Shown piece after piece: positions 1-11,882 of a DNA stretch of 11,924 nt. The DNA comes from Candidatus Schekmanbacteria bacterium (lineage in GTDB: Bacteria; CSSED10-310; JACPHN01): the NCBI GenBank assembly GCA_016188575.1, contig JACPHN010000226.1, positions 1 through 11,924 of the forward strand, read 5' to 3'. The first letter of the stretch is position 1. Every line of letters starts with the position of its first letter. The translations under genes were made by a program, and so were the position numbers. The notes under the pieces were generated by a model that was not told the DNA's origin, ran no database searches, and saw only the letters and a list, made by a program, of their open reading frames with translations.

Positions 1-114
1 AAACTCCCGGTTGTCCATCGAGACAACACTGTTGTCGGCGACCCGGCGCAAGCAGACGGTTACGAAAGCCTTGTGCACATCGATTCCGGCGCAAATTGGG
101 TGTACGACCTGCAT
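1..114 (-). CDS. IS110-family transposase, N-terminal fragment (cut by window edge)
   Basis: Read on the minus strand from the ATG at 114, the frame is open to the window edge and gives 38 residues beginning MQVVHPICAGIDVHKAFVTV. The AGIDVHK segment is the hallmark N-terminus of IS110-family transposases. Its Asp12 corresponds to the first acidic residue of the RuvC-like DEDD catalytic site. In this family the enzyme recombines donor and target DNA guided by an element-encoded bridge RNA. The remaining catalytic residues and the C-terminal serine-containing Tnp domain lie outside the window, so completeness cannot be judged. The start is chosen because homology begins a few codons after this ATG. 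The non-coding stretch upstream (115-~305) fits the family's left end. Confidence 0.85.
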   Translation of the reverse strand, partial: MQVVHPICAGIDVHKAFVTVCLRRVADNSVVSMDNREF

Positions 115-148
115 GGGCGTTGCCTCCAAGCTCGCATTGGGGTAAGAA

Positions 149-297
149 GAGAAGCGCGGCGACGAGTCCCGGCGGTGAGCTCTGGTTCTTCCCACTCGTG
201 TGCATGAACGACTCGGCGGGGCGCCCAGGACGGGGCAGACCAATTTATTGACGGGCTTCGATGCCCAAAAACGTCCTCGATTCGTCGCCAGCTTCTC
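149..297 (-). ncRNA. Candidate IS110 bridge RNA region
   Basis: This segment lies directly upstream of the IS110 transposase start, where IS110-group elements encode their bridge RNA. The sequence shows a long inverted repeat. GAGAAGC (149-155) pairs with GCTTCTC (291-297), and GGCGACGA (158-165) pairs with TCGTCGCC (282-289), giving 15 base pairs interrupted only by a GC/A internal loop. Inside it is a short hairpin, GGGC-N6-GCCC (253-266). On the transcribed strand CGAGTC could also pair with GACTCG further 3'. A -10-like TATCAT (298-303) lies just outside the outer arm. It would place the transcript start inside that arm, so the true 5' end may be near 290. Target- and donor-binding loops could not be assigned because the right end and the insertion target are not visible. 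Confidence 0.45.
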
Positions 298-345
298 ATG
301 ATACGCACTGTTGTACACGAACCGCTCTACCGGATAAGCGTTTTC

Positions 346-1266
346 ATGCGGCGGGGCGTCTGCCCAGCAGTCATGGGTGATTTATTGGTATCTCTAGCCG
401 ACCAAAACGTGCCTGCGCTGCATCCAAAGTATTCGATTCTTCGCCTCGAGCGGCACAAGCGTGCCTGCCTGACCTGGGGCCGCCGACTGGCCAAGGTGAT
501 GCCCTTTGCGCCGTGGATTGCGCGCTATTTGCCACTGTCGTTTGAGACCAAGGTGCAGCTCGACGCGCTTCCGCGACCCCAACTCGCCTACGGGATGTTC
601 GCGGCGGCGATGCAGGCCAGAGCACTGGGGCTGGAGGCAATTACTGCGGCCGAGCTGGGCGTCTTTGCCGGGGCGGGGTTGCGCTGCATGGAACGGTATG
701 CAGCACGCATCGAGGCGATCCCGGATCTCCACGGGGTGCGCATCGAGGTCGTCGGTTTCGACCGCGGCGAGGGGCTGCCGGCGTCCGACGATCCCCGGGA
801 TGCCCCCTATTGGTTCGAAGCGGGTCTGTTTCGCGTCGACATCGAGGTGGTCCGCCGCTCGCTGCGGCGTGCGCGGTTCCTCGTCGGTGATGTCGCCGAC
901 ACGGTGTCCGACTTCCTCGCGCTGGGACTGCCGCCCTTGGGGTTTGTCTCGTTTGATCTGGACTACTACCGATCGACGGTAGATGCGCTGCGCATCTTGG
1001 CGATTCCTGATCAGCGGCTGCTGCCCCGGGTGCTGTGCTACTTCGATGACATCTTTGGAGTTTCCGACCTGACGATCTTGGGACCCTGTGTGGGCGAGGA
1101 GGCGGCGATTGGTGAGTGGAATGCAAGCAACCCGCGCCGCCCGCTTGCCCCGGTTACGGGTCTACGCCACAAGAGGCCGTTTGCGGCCCCCTGGAACGAC
1201 CAGTACTGGGCGCTGCACCTGTGGGACCATCCCTTGTACAACGTGGGGATCAATCCACTAACCTGA
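346..1266 (+). CDS. SAM-dependent methyltransferase-like protein
   Basis: With the start at 346 this is a 306-residue soluble protein with a Rossmann methyltransferase pattern. The glycine-rich SAM motif is ELGVFAGAG (residues 103-111). The second strand is VVGFD ending in an acidic residue (135-139). LVGDVADTV (179-187) follows, then an acidic strand GFVSFDLDYY (199-208) and CYFDDIFG (231-238) near the presumed active site. The acceptor is unknown; sugar or polyketide O-methylation is only a loose analogy. The ATG at 346 has a modest GGATAAG seven bases upstream. ATG 298 has no ribosome-binding site and would begin inside the IS110 end. ATG 373 is a good alternative, since the conserved part begins after it. 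The gene is convergent with the kinase, leaving 41 bases between the two stops. The adjoining IS may have removed its original upstream context. Confidence 0.75.
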   Translation: MRRGVCPAVMGDLLVSLADQNVPALHPKYSILRLERHKRACLTWGRRLAKVMPFAPWIARYLPLSFETKVQLDALPRPQLAYGMFAAAMQARALGLEAITAAELGVFAGAGLRCMERYAARIEAIPDLHGVRIEVVGFDRGEGLPASDDPRDAPYWFEAGLFRVDIEVVRRSLRRARFLVGDVADTVSDFLALGLPPLGFVSFDLDYYRSTVDALRILAIPDQRLLPRVLCYFDDIFGVSDLTILGPCVGEEAAIGEWNASNPRRPLAPVTGLRHKRPFAAPWNDQYWALHLWDHPLYNVGINPLT

Positions 1267-1307
1267 GCGCTGCCGAAGAGCGGGCAGAGGGCGAGCGGAC
1301 CGATGTG

Positions 1308-2660
1308 CTATGACGTTGCCGTCCTGACGCTCCGGTGGGCGGCCTCGGCGCGCTGCAGGAGGTCGCGGGCCTCGGCGTCGTCCAGGTTGAAAAGGAGGTA
1401 TTTCCGCAGCGACACGATGGCCGCCAGGTATCGCTTGCGCCGCAGGTACTCCATGGCTTGCTGCTTGTGGTGAAGCGCCGCAGCGGCCATCTCCGCCGCC
1501 GCGGTGGGCTCCGGGCGCGAGGGACGGGAGGCTTGCCGAGGAGGAGGCTCCGTCGCGGGATCCGATAGCGCAGGAGCTCGCGATGCCCCCGACTGCGGCG
1601 GCGTGGCGCGCGTCCTGTCATCTGCGCCGGCACGTCCGGGAGGCGCGGCGTAGCCCCCGGAAGCGTTTTCCCGAATGGTCAGGTCATCGTCGTCACCGCG
1701 GTCCTCGGCTACCGGAGCAAGTGGCGTGTGCTGATCGGTGCCCACGTCGTTGGCGGGCGTGGGTGCGGGTATCCACTGAGTGCGCGACTTTCCCATCGTG
1801 CGCAGCAGCGTAGCGAGGGCATCGGCCATCTCGTCGGCGGTTGCAAAGCGGTCCGCCGGCTGCTTGCTCAGAGCGCGCAGGACGATCGGATCCAGCTCGG
1901 GCGGGAGCGCAGCATTGATCTCGGAAGGCGGTCGCGGATCCCGGCTGACCGTGGCATTGAGCATCATCGCAACGGTCTCGCCATCAAACGGCTTGAATCC
2001 CGTCAACATCTCGAATAACACGCATCCGACACTGAAAATGTCCGATCGGTGGTCAACGCGCTCGGCCATGATTTGCTCGGGCGACATGTAGCACGGAGTT
2101 CCAACCATGTCACCGGTCTGGAAGTAATGCGTGGAGGTTGCCTCCGAGAGGATCTTGGCGATGCCAAAGTCGGTAATCTTTACTTGCCGTTCCTGATTGA
2201 TGATCAGGTTGGACGGCTTGATATCGCGGTGTACAATCCGCTTGCTGTGTGCATAGCACAACCCACGAAGAACCTGAATAGCGATGAAGCAGGCTGCTCT
2301 CGCCGATGGAAACCCGCGCGTGCGCAGCAGGTGGAGCAGCGTCGAGCCCCTGACGAACTCCATGGCGAAGTAGCAAAGATCGCCGCAGGCACCCGCTTCG
2401 TAGAAATACACGATATTGGGATGCTTCAGGCTCTGAATCACCCGAGCTTCACGCATGAGTTGGCTGTGCAACTGCTCGGCGCCGCCGGCTACGCTCGCCA
2501 GGTCGCCTTGCTGCGTAGTCTTCAGCGCGACGACCTTGTAGGTCTGGCGGTCCAGTGCCTTGTAGACCACACCCATCGATCCACGGCCAATCGGCCGGAT
2601 GAGCAGAAACTTCCCCACGCTGCGCTTGATGCGGGCTTTTCCGCTCGCGCCCGCCGTCAT
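1308..2660 (-). CDS. Hanks-type serine/threonine protein kinase
   Basis: This is a 450-residue cytosolic Ser/Thr kinase. All key elements are present: glycine loop GRGSMG (25-30), ATP-binding Lys47 in VALK, Glu71 of helix C, catalytic HRDIKPSN (144-151), DFG (164-166), activation-segment end GTPCYMSPEQ (188-197, with SPE for APE) and Asp207 in RSDIFS. The kinase domain ends near residue 290. A proline/alanine-rich, probably disordered linker (about 295-395) follows, then a TPR-like helical segment, KQQAMEYLRRKRYLAAIVSL and onward (about 397-440). No transmembrane helix is seen, unlike PknB-type receptor kinases. ATG 2660 is preferred because GGGGAGAAG lies immediately upstream; a GTG at 2672 would use part of that site as codons. 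The gene lies about 90 bases downstream of the acyltransferase on the same strand, so co-transcription is possible. Its substrates cannot be inferred. Confidence 0.92.
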   Translation of the reverse strand: MTAGASGKARIKRSVGKFLLIRPIGRGSMGVVYKALDRQTYKVVALKTTQQGDLASVAGGAEQLHSQLMREARVIQSLKHPNIVYFYEAGACGDLCYFAMEFVRGSTLLHLLRTRGFPSARAACFIAIQVLRGLCYAHSKRIVHRDIKPSNLIINQERQVKITDFGIAKILSEATSTHYFQTGDMVGTPCYMSPEQIMAERVDHRSDIFSVGCVLFEMLTGFKPFDGETVAMMLNATVSRDPRPPSEINAALPPELDPIVLRALSKQPADRFATADEMADALATLLRTMGKSRTQWIPAPTPANDVGTDQHTPLAPVAEDRGDDDDLTIRENASGGYAAPPGRAGADDRTRATPPQSGASRAPALSDPATEPPPRQASRPSRPEPTAAAEMAAAALHHKQQAMEYLRRKRYLAAIVSLRKYLLFNLDDAEARDLLQRAEAAHRSVRTATS

Positions 2661-7378: not shown

Positions 7379-7391
7379 GCGCAAGACCGTG

Positions 7392-9020
7392 ATGTCGGCT
7401 GCCATCCAATTCGACACGGCTCCATCGCGGTATCGTCACCTCAGCCTCGTCGCCGACGGTGACATCGCCTGGATTCACCTGCACGTCGCCGAGGACGGAG
7501 GCATCTTCCCCGGCTACGCGCTCAAGCTCAATTCCTACGACCTCGGCGTCGACATCGAGCTCGCCGATGTGGTGAACCGGTTGCGCTTCGAGCACCCCGA
7601 GGTAGGGGCCGTCATCCTGACTAGCGATCTGCCGGGAGTCTTTTGTGCCGGAGCAAATATCTTCATGCTCTCGGGCGCAGAGCACGGATTCAAAGTCAAT
7701 TTCTGCAAGCTGACGAACGAGACGCGCCTGGCGATCGAGGACGCTACGGAATGCTCCGGACAAGTGTATGTTGCGGCGATCAACGGCATTGCATCCGGGG
7801 GCGGCTACGAGCTCGCGCTCGCGTGTAGTGAAATCTACCTGGTGGACGATCGCAAGTCGGCGGTGGCGTTTCCTGAGATCCCTTACCTCGGTGTGTTGCC
7901 CGGAACGGGAGGATTGACCCGGCTGGTGGACAAGCGCCACGTGCGCCGGGACCTCGCGGATCGGTTTTGCACGCTGGCAGAGGGCGTAAAAGGCCGCCGG
8001 GCCAAGGAGTGGGGGCTGGTCGACGAAGTCGTGGAGCCTACGCGGTTCAGGGAGCTCGTGGAGACGCGAGCGCGCGCACTGGCAGCGGGGCCGGCGCGAG
8101 CGAACCGCACGGGCGTCGTGCTCGACCCGGTGAAACCGCGCGTATCAGCGGACGGCCTGGAATACGAGCACGTCAGTCTGCGACTGGGCCCGGAGCCGCG
8201 CACCGCGCATCTGGTGGTGCGCGGACCTGCCACCGCCGCAGCGGCGGTCACCAGCCCCGCGGCGCTCGACGCGACCTGGTATCCGCTGCGGGCATTCCGG
8301 GAGCTGGATGATGTGCTCCTGCGGCTGCGGTTTAGCTATCCGGAAGCCGGCCTGGTCACCATCGAGACCGCCGGCGACCTCGCTGCCGTGCTCGCCGTCG
8401 ACGACTTTATGGCGCGGCACCGCGAGCACTGGCTCGTCAACGAGGTCGTGCTGCTGATGAAGCGCGTGCTCAAGCGCCTGGACAACACGGCCCGGACCTT
8501 CTTCGCGCTGGTGTCCTCCGGATCATGCTTCGCGGGCAGCTTGCTCGAGCTCGCACTGGCGGCGGACCGCTCATATATGCTCGATGATGGCGGCGTGGCG
8601 GTGGCGGTTTCGCCGCTGAGCTTCGGCGCTCTGCCGATGGGGAACGGGCTTTATCGGCTTGCCGCTCGTTGCTATCCAGATACCGCGCCCATCCTGCGCT
8701 TGCGGAGCATGATTGCGCCGCTTGACGCGCAGGCCGCTGCACGCGAAGGCCTCGTGACCGAGGTCCTCGATGCCCTGGATTGGGACGACGAGCTACGCCT
8801 GGCAGCCGAGGAGCGCGCGAGCTTGTCGCCGGATGCGCTCACGGCGATGGAAAGCAATCTCCGTTTTGCGGGCCCGGAGACCCTGGAAACGAAGATCTTC
8901 GGGCGGCTGTCAGCGTGGCAAAACTGGATCTTTCAGCGACCGAACGCCACCGGAACGCAGGGTGCGCTGACGCTCTATGGGCGACCGGAGTCAGCGACGT
9001 TCGACTGGCGCCGAACCTGA
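7392..9020 (+). CDS. boxC: 2,3-epoxybenzoyl-CoA dihydrolase (BoxC)
   Basis: BoxC hydrolytically opens and cleaves 2,3-epoxybenzoyl-CoA to 3,4-dehydroadipyl-CoA semialdehyde and formate in aerobic benzoyl-CoA degradation. The 542-residue length fits the family (about 550). It has a fused double crotonase architecture. The first domain holds the oxyanion-hole segment FCAGANIFML (84-93), the INGIASGGGYELALA loop-helix (130-144) and AFPEIPYLGVLPGTGG (159-174) with Glu162. The second, degenerate domain (about 290-460) contains SSGSCFAGSLLELALAADRS and PLSFGALPMGNG. ATG 7392 is preferred over the GTG at 7389 directly before it; the ribosome-binding site is weak, so coupling to the sprT-like gene 13 bases upstream is plausible. 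The adjacent downstream BoxB, its pathway partner, makes the call firm. Confidence 0.95.
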   Translation: MSAAIQFDTAPSRYRHLSLVADGDIAWIHLHVAEDGGIFPGYALKLNSYDLGVDIELADVVNRLRFEHPEVGAVILTSDLPGVFCAGANIFMLSGAEHGFKVNFCKLTNETRLAIEDATECSGQVYVAAINGIASGGGYELALACSEIYLVDDRKSAVAFPEIPYLGVLPGTGGLTRLVDKRHVRRDLADRFCTLAEGVKGRRAKEWGLVDEVVEPTRFRELVETRARALAAGPARANRTGVVLDPVKPRVSADGLEYEHVSLRLGPEPRTAHLVVRGPATAAAAVTSPAALDATWYPLRAFRELDDVLLRLRFSYPEAGLVTIETAGDLAAVLAVDDFMARHREHWLVNEVVLLMKRVLKRLDNTARTFFALVSSGSCFAGSLLELALAADRSYMLDDGGVAVAVSPLSFGALPMGNGLYRLAARCYPDTAPILRLRSMIAPLDAQAAAREGLVTEVLDALDWDDELRLAAEERASLSPDALTAMESNLRFAGPETLETKIFGRLSAWQNWIFQRPNATGTQGALTLYGRPESATFDWRRT

Positions 9021-9024
9021 TTCG

Positions 9025-9062
9025 GTGCCCGGTTGACAGCGGCAGGTGTGGCCGGGCACAAT
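9025..9062 (+). promoter_or_regulatory. Dyad-flanked promoter candidate between boxC and boxB
   Basis: Five bases after the boxC stop begins a perfect 8-bp inverted repeat, GTGCCCGG (9025-9032) and CCGGGCAC (9052-9059), separated by 19 bases. Enclosed is a consensus -35 TTGACA (9033-9038), followed at 18 bases by CACAAT (9057-9062), a four-of-six -10 match that overlaps the right arm. It may be a boxB promoter with an operator dyad, or a stem-loop in the boxC-boxB message acting in processing or attenuation. There is no U-tract, so a classical terminator is unlikely. The remaining spacer to boxB (9063-9154) shows nothing else beyond the boxB ribosome-binding site. Confidence 0.5.
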
Positions 9063-9154
9063 GGAGACCAGGAACAGCGCCGAGCGGCTGCTCGCGACCA
9101 GCGTTCCGGCATGCCGCCACGGCCACCCTCTGAAAAGACGAGGAGACCACCGCC

Positions 9155-10585
9155 ATGGCATCCTTTTCTCTTGACCGCATCCCGAATAACGTCGACTTGT
9201 CGAGCGATCCACGGCTGCAGAAGGCGCTCGAGTTGTGGCAGCCCAACTTCGCGCGCTGGTGGCAGGAGATGGGGCCCTCAGGCTTTCAGCAGGATCACAT
9301 CTATCTGCGCACGGCGGTCGACGTCGCGCCCGGCGGCTGGGCGCATTTCGACTTCGTCCGCATGCCCGAGTACCGCTGGGGCATATTTCTGGCCCCTTCG
9401 CAGCGCGACCGCGTGATCGGGTTTGGTGACAACCTGGGGCGACCCGTCTGGAATGAAGTCCCCGGCGAGCTCAGGAAGGAGCTTCGCCGCATCATCGTCA
9501 CCCAGGGAGATACCGAACCGGCATCGGTCGAGCAGCAGCGGCAGCTCGGCCAGACCGCGCCAAGTCTCTACGACTTGCGCAACCTCTTTCAGGTCAACGT
9601 CGAAGAGGGCCGACACCTGTGGGCAATGGTATACCTGCTGCACCGCTACTTCGGCCGCGATGGACGCGAAGAAGCTGAGGAGATGTTGGTCAGACACAGT
9701 GGCGATGCTGACACCCCACGCCTGCTCGAGGCGTTCAACAAGCCGATTGCAAGCTGGTTGGATTTCTTCTGCTTCGCGATGTTCGCGGACCGGGACGGCA
9801 AGTACCAGCTCGCGGCGCTCGCGGAGAGCGGCTTTGACCCGCTGGCGCGGTCGACCCAGTTCATGCTCACAGAGGAAGCTCACCACCTCTTCGTCGGGGA
9901 GACTGGGATCGGTCGGATCGTGGAGCGGACGGCGGAGCTCATGGTGCAAGACCCGAGCGAGGACGTCACCCGGTGCGGCGGCATTCCGCTCGACATGATC
10001 CAGCGCTACGTCAACGAGTGGTTCAGCACGTCGTTGGACTTGTTCGGCGGCGAGGATTCATCCAATGCCGCTCGGTACTTTGCCGCGGGCTTGAAAGGCC
10101 GGTACCGGGAATGCAGCGATGCGCGGTATGATGACCACGTAGCGCTGGAGAGCGCCTACCGGCTGTGCGCGCCGGGCGCCGACGGCGCGCTGCACGAGAT
10201 GCAAATCCCGATGCGCAGGGCGATGAACGCGATCCTCAGAGATAGCTACGCGGACGAGTGCCGGCGCGCCGTGGAGCGGTGGAACGTACATTTGCGCGGC
10301 CGGGGGATCGGCTTTACGTTGCGCTTGCCGTCGCTCGCATTCAATCGCAGACAGGGAGTGTTCGCGGGCATGTTGGCCACTCCCGCCGGGCAGCCGCTGG
10401 TGGCTGCGGAGTTTGATCGCGCGCGGGACGAGTTTCTGCCCTCGAGCAGGGACCGAGCGTACGTCGCATCGCTCATGGTGCCGGTGTATGAGCCGGGCAA
10501 GATCGCGGGCTGGATTGCGCCACCGCGAAAAGGAATCAACGGCAAGCCGCCCGAGCTCGAGTACGTCCGGCGCGCGAGCGCCTGA
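9155..10585 (+). CDS. boxB: Benzoyl-CoA 2,3-epoxidase, diiron subunit (BoxB)
   Basis: BoxB is the class I diiron oxygenase that uses O2 and electrons from the BoxA reductase to form 2,3-epoxybenzoyl-CoA in the cytoplasm. The 476-residue length is typical. The diiron ligands known for the Azoarcus enzyme (E120, E150, H153, D211, E240, H243, from memory) reappear here shifted by exactly one: Glu121, Glu151 and His154 in VNVEEGRH, Asp212 in FADRDG, Glu241 and His244 in TEEAHH. The oxygenase core therefore looks intact. GAGGAG about ten bases before ATG 9155 supports the start. It follows boxC after 134 bases containing a possible promoter of its own. No boxA or benzoate-CoA ligase is in the window, so the electron-transfer partner must be encoded elsewhere. 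Confidence 0.96.
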   Translation: MASFSLDRIPNNVDLSSDPRLQKALELWQPNFARWWQEMGPSGFQQDHIYLRTAVDVAPGGWAHFDFVRMPEYRWGIFLAPSQRDRVIGFGDNLGRPVWNEVPGELRKELRRIIVTQGDTEPASVEQQRQLGQTAPSLYDLRNLFQVNVEEGRHLWAMVYLLHRYFGRDGREEAEEMLVRHSGDADTPRLLEAFNKPIASWLDFFCFAMFADRDGKYQLAALAESGFDPLARSTQFMLTEEAHHLFVGETGIGRIVERTAELMVQDPSEDVTRCGGIPLDMIQRYVNEWFSTSLDLFGGEDSSNAARYFAAGLKGRYRECSDARYDDHVALESAYRLCAPGADGALHEMQIPMRRAMNAILRDSYADECRRAVERWNVHLRGRGIGFTLRLPSLAFNRRQGVFAGMLATPAGQPLVAAEFDRARDEFLPSSRDRAYVASLMVPVYEPGKIAGWIAPPRKGINGKPPELEYVRRASA

Positions 10586-11642: not shown

Positions 11643-11882
11643 GTCCCCTCCCCGAGTGCCGCCTTCCGCTTCCTGGCGGGCTTTCACAATGCCCCGGAAG
11701 AAGCCAGGCGGCAGCCCGGGGTGGCCTTCATCCCAGCTCCGAACGAGAACCTCTTTGGATTGACCCAGGTCATCGCCGACCTCGTCGCCCGCGTTGCCGA
11801 GAGGCGCGGACAGCGACAGGCCACCCTGGACGCTGACGCCACTCTGATTGAAACCCACAAGAAAGAGGCGCTCTTCTGCTAG
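11640..11882 (+). pseudogene. IS1380-like transposase fragment
   Basis: From about 11646 the plus strand encodes PSPSAAFRFLAGFHN, EEARRQPGVAFIPAPNENL and ATLDADATLIETHKKEALFC. These fit the part of IS1380-type (IS4-superfamily DDE) transposases that leads up to and includes the first catalytic Asp (DADAT). The frame then hits two stop codons in a row (TAG TAG, 11880-11885), where intact relatives as I recall them continue with a Tyr-Lys-Gly-rich segment. None of the three frames in the last 40 bases restores that segment. The upstream sequence in this frame (11544-11640) does not look like the family's N-terminus. Both ends are therefore missing and the fragment is a dead remnant. Family naming is from memory of the motif pattern. 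Confidence 0.6.

What the first reader, a model, noticed from the sequence alone, without database searches (positions are those of the whole stretch)
115..305. Structured non-coding segment ahead of an IS110 transposase: candidate bridge RNA
A 15-bp interrupted inverted repeat (149-165 with 282-297) encloses an inner GGGC-N6-GCCC hairpin, exactly in the non-coding left end of an IS110 element. A -10-like TATCAT sits at the outer edge, as expected if the -35 is supplied by the right end in a circular intermediate. Published IS110 bridge RNAs have separate target- and donor-binding loops; a long stem joining the RNA's two ends may indicate a variant fold.
Basis: partly seen in the sequence, partly recalled or inferred. 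Interest (0 to 1): 0.7.

Follow-up and report, generated by a model that had tools for sequence, protein, structure and literature searches.

The report
IS110 bridge RNA with swapped guides
The segment is the gene for a bridge RNA, the guide that tells an IS110-family jumping gene where to insert, and it belongs to a large branch whose guide pieces sit in the opposite order to the best-studied bridge RNA and whose two ends are clamped together by a stem.

Summary
Window 380-115 (minus strand) is the non-coding left end (LE) of an IS110 element whose transposase starts at 114 and runs off the contig. Seventy-nine ncRNA matches in 84 loci of relatives (transposases 37-49% identical) show a conserved RNA: a closing stem P1 around two hairpin-bearing loops, with two-sided changes at all 29 pairs. 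The first loop reads the target; the second reads the element's right end.

In this clade the stretches identical to the left target and left donor lie 3' of each loop's hairpin, and the right-target guide lies 5'. That is the reverse of IS621. It is the order published for IS1111, but with the ncRNA upstream of the transposase, as in IS110. The window obeys the code: CAATA-AA recurs at the LE junction and GTGGG-AA at the right end.

The window match to a model of the relatives is weak (13.8 bits), and all copies in this genome are broken or cut by contig ends. No expression data exist.

The parts
1..114 (-). N-terminal 38 codons of the IS110 (DEDD) transposase; start codon at 114-112; runs off the contig
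   Evidence: Frame open to the contig end. The overlapping copy on contig C139 gives PF01548 at 8e-18. NCBIfam NF033542 'IS110 family RNA-guided transposase', E 6.6e-27 (94.5 bits, below that model's cut-off of 140 for the whole protein; 125-aa fragment).
115..380 (-). Non-coding left end (LE) of the element
   Evidence: Other copies in the genome stop near here. Boundary set by the register core - nnnCCCATG - ATGAAAA shared with relatives.
381..382 (.). Core dinucleotide at the left junction (AA on the transposase strand; AG in most relatives)
   Evidence: Register against relatives.
383..389 (-). Left target flank ACCAATA; its CAATA plus core equals the left-target guide. The same ACCAATA-AA stands at four copies with different outer flanks
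   Evidence: guide match.
341..347 (-). Conserved leader motif ATGAAAA, +33 from the core
   Evidence: Present at +28 to +39 in 29 of 35 elements.
298..303 (-). TATCAT, possible -10 inside the leader (function not shown)
   Evidence: -10-like hexamers stand at the same place, just before P1, in several relatives.
149..297 (-). Predicted bridge RNA (ends uncertain)
   Evidence: Best window hit of model R1 at 296-149.
282..297 (-). P1 closing stem, 5' strand
149..165 (-). P1 closing stem, 3' strand
273..276 (-). P2 (stem of the target loop) 5' strand GGAC; pairs with GUCU at 240-237. Relatives have GGUC/GACC, so the middle pair is changed on both sides
   Evidence: P2 99.4% paired in relatives; sequence.
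237..240 (-). P2 3' strand
   Evidence: As above.
268..272 (-). Right-target guide GUU plus core complement UU (5' side of the target loop)
   Evidence: By homology with the tested position; compatible, with wobbles, with most right flanks of copies C61, C122, C141 and C227 (and loci).
253..266 (-). Hairpin of the target loop, GGGC-AUCGAA-GCCC
244..250 (-). Left-target guide CAAUA plus core AA (3' side of the target loop), identical to the top strand of the left junction
   Evidence: 8-nt match to the LE end (D7; the repeat is CAATAAAT). In relatives 22/30 have 7 nt or more against 1.2% when swapped.
242..243 (-). Handshake-guide position (UU; donor here starts TC)
   Evidence: In relatives 43/54 matches against 27.7 by shuffling.
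225..231 (-). P3 (stem of the donor loop) 5' strand GUCCUGG
   Evidence: Pairs with CCGGGAC 172-166. In relatives P3 is 84.6% paired; own -16.2 against swapped -9.7 kcal/mol.
166..172 (-). P3 3' strand CCGGGAC
   Evidence: As above.
187..195 (-). Left-donor guide GUGGG plus core AA, GA (3' side of the donor loop); identical to the element's right end GTGGG-AA-GA on contig C141
   Evidence: Sequence. In relatives 29/32 have 7 nt or more against 2.5% when swapped.

Best explanation
Window 149-297 (minus strand) encodes the bridge RNA of an IS110-family insertion sequence of the branch with long transposases (about 400-410 aa). The RNA is closed by a stem P1 and holds two similar loops. [quoted passage not shown] In the second, the 3' side (GUGGG-AA) is identical to the element's right end plus core. 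The transposase would use the two loops to hold circular element and target together and exchange strands at the A(G/A) core. Shown: structure conservation, the left-target, right-target and left-donor matches, and the handshake match. Inferred: transcription, binding by the transposase, and recombination. Not resolved: the right-donor guide.
For: Window copy: DEDD transposase N-terminus just downstream; model R1 built without the window hits 296-149 minus; P1 15 bp; left-target guide equals the LE junction over 8 nt; left-donor guide equals the right end of copy C141 over 9 nt. Clade: all 29 pairs have two-sided changes, 85.4% of cells paired, covariation score 0.572 against 0.187 shuffled and 0.170 or less when slid (alignment fitted to the model). 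On the unfitted MAFFT alignment: 0.338 against 0.178, slid up to 0.285. P1 and P3 tested without an alignment: 0/5000 permutations each. Of 16 combinations of loop side, end and strand, only loop-1 3' side with LE (27/39 own matches of 8 nt or more against 1.2% swapped) and loop-2 3' side with RE (28/39 against 14%) stand out. Right-target guide: 78/165 against 42.9, 0/5000, on 33 non-redundant elements, with the clear signal at one offset only. Elements L063 and L047, 82% alike, differ in left flank (TCAGT, TGAAT) and in guide (TCAGT, TGAAT) together.
Against: The window match to the model is only 13.8 bits, and a chance hit at 11705-11801 reaches 13.3. The 5' side of the window's donor loop lacks the conserved UUGU. 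The right-target guide explains the right flanks of the copies only in part and with wobbles. Every copy in this genome is internally deleted, frameshifted or cut by a contig end, so activity today is doubtful. The four copies share AC before CAATA, which the guide allows only as G-U wobbles, so those bases could also reflect common descent. No small-RNA data.
Confidence: 0.88

Rival explanations
1. It is an ordinary bridge RNA with the IS621 architecture (left guides 5', right guides 3' of each hairpin, no closing stem), and the swapped order is an artefact of how ends were placed.
For: IS110-type position of the ncRNA upstream of the transposase. IS621 and ISEc21 have the other order (PMC11208158; PMC11187229).
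Against: The assignment-free scan of all loop sides, ends and strands gives signal only for the 3' sides by identity. The right-target signal falls on the 5' side directly before the hairpin. In real IS621 copies the right-end sequence ACAGTAT-C lies 5' of its hairpin, and model R1 does not hit IS621.
Confidence: 0.05
2. The segment is a decayed remnant that still looks like a bridge RNA but no longer works.
For: Weak model score, missing UUGU, frameshift and deletions in the genome's copies.
Against: The longer copies are 94-97% identical to the window, P1 is intact in the copy on C61 that spans it, and the guides still match both ends, so the family moved fairly recently.
Confidence: 0.4
3. 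The stem is a transcription or translation control element of the transposase (attenuator or ribosome-site sequestering), not a guide RNA.
For: It lies directly upstream of the gene; P1 ends about 20 nt before the ribosome site.
Against: It does not explain matches of loop segments to the element's two ends or to the target flanks.
Confidence: 0.05

Closest known systems
IS621 bridge RNA (IS110 family; Durrant et al. 2024, Hiraizumi et al. 2024)
   Same: ncRNA in the left end upstream of a DEDD transposase; first loop reads target, second reads donor; dinucleotide core included in the guides; two handshake bases after the core guide. DEDD motif and the conserved serine of IS621 align with this transposase.
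   Different: Guide order within loops is reversed relative to the transposase strand; the core reads AG (CT on the other strand); both loops are enclosed by closing stem P1 instead of following a 5' stem-loop; transposase about 409 aa against about 326 aa.
ISEc21 seekRNA (IS110 family; Siddiquee et al. 2024)
   Same: NCR upstream of the transposase; short segments match both target strands.
   Different: In ISEc21 the top-strand match lies 3' of the bottom-strand match; here it lies 5'.
IS1111-group seekRNA (ISEc11, ISPa11, ISKpn4; Siddiquee et al. 2024)
   Same: Same guide order: top-strand match 5' of bottom-strand match.
   Different: IS1111 elements carry the NCR downstream of the transposase and have subterminal inverted repeats of 7-17 bp; here the NCR is upstream.
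IS110 long-transposase subgroup (395-455 aa; ISArsp3 is an annotated example, L050)
   Same: Same transposase length class and upstream NCR; L050 matches the model (41.3 bits).
   Different: No published account of its guide order was found in the text I could read; figures were not readable.

Membership tests
IS110 family | DEDD RuvC-like N-terminal domain (PF01548) | tested here: met
   65.1 bits against cut-off 29, on the overlapping copy; D12, E63, D99, D102 present.
IS110 family | C-terminal domain PF02371 with conserved serine | tested here: met
   Same-family copy on contig C141; serine 299 aligned. The window itself holds only the N-terminus.
IS110 family | Structured ncRNA in a long non-coding end | tested here: met
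   266-nt LE.
IS110 family | Circular intermediate, scarless insertion at a core dinucleotide | not testable with these tools
   Core inferred from junctions only.
Bridge RNA (function) | Separate loops matching target and donor, core included | tested here: met
   the right-donor guide was not found.
Bridge RNA (function) | RNA expressed and bound by the transposase | not testable with these tools
   No expression data.
IS621-type bridge RNA | Left guides 5' and right guides 3' of each hairpin | tested here: not met
   control IS621.
IS621-type bridge RNA | Fold of 5' stem-loop, target loop, donor loop, not enclosed | tested here: not met
   Closing stem P1 conserved; R1 does not match IS621.
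IS1111 group | NCR downstream of the transposase | tested here: not met
   NCR is upstream in the window and in the matched relatives.
IS1111 group | Top-strand match 5' of bottom-strand match | tested here: met
IS1111 group | Subterminal inverted repeats of 7-17 bp | not tested
IS1111 group | Transposase of 330-350 aa in the IS1111 clade of a tree | tested here: inconclusive
   Length of about 409 aa does not fit; no tree with IS1111 members was built.

The most novel reading that the evidence does not exclude
A large, widespread IS110 branch uses bridge RNAs whose loops read DNA in the frame opposite to the transposase gene: IS621 geometry with a CT core and handshake bases, but with the transposase-RNA cassette turned round relative to the element ends, and with a closing stem. 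Guide order and ncRNA position would then be independent traits, giving a third arrangement beside IS621/ISEc21 and IS1111, and a separate set of programmable recombinases.
Probability: 0.5. Interest if true: 0.62.

Novelty: new variant of a known kind. Interest (0 to 1): 0.48.

Why it matters
Bridge RNAs are being developed as programmable DNA-insertion tools, and their design rules rest on IS621 and a few others. If a whole branch has its guides in the other order and a clamped RNA, guides designed by the IS621 rule would fail for it, while the rule given here (5-6 nt plus AG after each hairpin for left target and right end; reverse complement of core plus right target before the first hairpin) would let its members be reprogrammed. 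It also questions the published generalisation that guide order separates IS1111 from IS110.

Tried and rejected
Rfam: no match on window 1-1500 at E up to 5. DNA search of 98 related genomes and of the plasmid collection with the left end: nothing outside the own genome. First genome-contig scan with the single protein found no relative; the alignment query worked. Placing the element end at 389 by comparing copies was rejected: copies with the same guide share target bases, and the register with relatives puts it at 380/381. An empty site was sought for C122: an IS5-like paralogue (L023) gives the right flank and a left target GGCACAAGA-AG, but C122's left flank is unrelated, so the pair is not a clean empty site. 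Right-donor guide on the 5' side of loop 2: no offset stood out (best 47/136 against 38.3). P1 on the MAFFT alignment is blurred by register shifts (53.5% paired, 58.0% when slid by +1), so the alignment-free test was used. The donor-loop handshake is only suggestive (27/66 against 20.8). No structure prediction was run; it would not decide between the explanations.

Full report
What was checked. The window is the whole of contig C82 (11,924 bases) of a 9.2-Mb assembly. Its first 114 bases on the minus strand encode the N-terminus of an IS110 transposase. Parts of the same family lie on contigs C61 (both ends present, middle deleted), C122 (99 nt of left end joined to the right end, no transposase and no RNA loops), C160 (shortened left end), and C139 plus C141, whose ends overlap by 141 bases and together give a 409-aa transposase with one frameshift.

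Folding energy alone is a weak argument (z -1.84), so the case rests on relatives.

Relatives. The single protein found none in the genome collection. A profile of six transposases found 80 loci, and 14 more came from viral contigs. Their transposases are mostly 37-49% identical to this one and come from many phyla. Upstream of the transposase nearly all carry one and the same RNA pattern: stem - GAGGTCG - variable - TTGGTGC..GAGCCCG - variable+AG - GACC - stem - GAGCACC..TTGT - hairpin - GAGCACG - variable+AG - stem - stem. A covariance model from 31 of them (window excluded) gives 79 matches in 84 sources. On the model's alignment all 29 pairs show two-sided changes and 85.4% of cells pair; covariation 0.572 against 0.187 for shuffles and at most 0.170 for slid pairings. 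That alignment is fitted to the structure; on the unfitted one the score is 0.338 against 0.178, with a slid version at 0.285. Tested without any alignment of the strands, those of the closing stem fit their own partner better than partners from other elements (-24.5 against -15.5 kcal/mol), as do those of the donor-loop stem (-16.2 against -9.7), 0 of 5000 permutations each. In the window, the target-loop stem GGUC/GACC of the relatives has become GGAC/GUCU, still paired.

The code. Ends were first mapped by comparing copies, then generally. With all four loop sides tested against both ends, on both strands, in 39 non-redundant elements, only two combinations stand out: the 3' side of loop 1 is identical to the left junction (27/39 with 8 nt or more, 1.2% when swapped) and the 3' side of loop 2 is identical to the right end (28/39, 14% when swapped). 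Anchored on the core the figures are 22/30 and 29/32 with 7 nt or more, against 1.2% and 2.5%. Right flanks, which were not used to place anything, match the reverse complement of the 5' side of loop 1 directly before the hairpin, with a clear signal at that offset only (94/200 against 51.1; 78/165 against 42.9 on non-redundant elements, 0/5000). Two bases after the core guide of loop 1 match the first two donor bases (43/54 against 27.7), as the handshake bases do in IS621 (PMC11208158). Shuffles do not remove all effects of kinship; the 82%-identical pair L063 and L047, where flank and guide differ together, does so for one case.

The window obeys the code. The left junction reads ACCAATA-AA-TCACCCATG and the RNA reads (G)UCAAUA-AA; the right end on C141 reads TTTACGTGGG-AA-GAG and the RNA reads GAGUGGG-AA-GAA. 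The left-end register core - nnnCCCATG - ATGAAAA (+33; relatives +28 to +39) fixes the boundary at 380/381. ACCAATA-AA stands at four copies with different outer flanks. The right flanks of the copies fit the short right-target guide (GUU) only partly and with wobbles.

Comparison with what is known. In IS621 the left guides lie 5' of each hairpin and pair with bottom strands, the right guides lie 3' (PMC11208160, PMC11208158). IS621 copies read here agree: ACAGTATC of the right end stands 5' of the donor hairpin. Siddiquee et al. (PMC11187229) report that four IS1111 elements have the top-strand match 5' of the bottom-strand match and that the IS110 member ISEc21 has the reverse. The present clade has the IS1111 order with the IS110 position of the ncRNA. 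Seen from the other DNA strand it is IS621 geometry with a CT core, that is, the transposase-RNA cassette is turned round relative to the ends; this is an interpretation. The closing stem is a second departure from IS621. Durrant et al. describe diverse bridge-RNA structures in figures that could not be read here, so the arrangement may have been drawn before; no text stating it was found.

Limits. The window match to the model is weak (13.8 bits; a chance hit in the same window scores 13.3), and its donor loop has lost the conserved UUGU. All own-genome copies are broken or cut off. The right-donor guide is unresolved. Nothing here shows transcription.

TATCAT (303-298) lies about 77 nt inside the element and just before P1, where several relatives also have -10-like hexamers. 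A -35 from across the junction is too far away; a promoter within the left-end leader is possible and untested.

Noticed in passing
G000 contig C122 4988-5206 (L018): Tiny non-autonomous derivative: 99 nt of left end (with leader and one P1 strand) joined to about 110 nt of right end, without transposase and without RNA loops; its right flank lies in an IS5-like transposase gene.
   Followed up: partly
G000 contig C160 1-238 (L003): Copy in which the left junction CCAATAAA is joined straight to the guide's own CAATAAATTGG inside the RNA gene; a left-target guide is by nature a copy of its target, so self-recombination or slippage at it is possible.
   Followed up: partly
window 298-1266: The long + strand ORF starts inside the insertion sequence; even its next ATG (374) is element DNA, so the gene's true start is unclear and the insertion hit its 5' end. 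No Pfam match.
   Followed up: no
window 7389-10585: Enoyl-CoA-hydratase-like and PaaA/PaaC-like genes in a row resemble boxC and boxB of aerobic benzoyl-CoA breakdown (names from memory; Pfam only), near thiC and a SprT-like gene.
   Followed up: no
G000 contig C227 138-165 (L019): Isolated relic of about 25 bp of the element's right end with a target flank, in unrelated DNA.
   Followed up: no
left ends of relatives, +1 to +40 from the core: A short hairpin followed by CACC..ATGAAAA stands at a fixed place just inside the left end of nearly all elements of the clade; role unknown, possibly recombinase binding.
   Followed up: partly
L063 transposase: Weak profile match to the TIGR-Tas endonuclease family (E 9.7e-5, below cut-off), in line with a distant link between IS110 and TIGR-Tas.
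   Followed up: no
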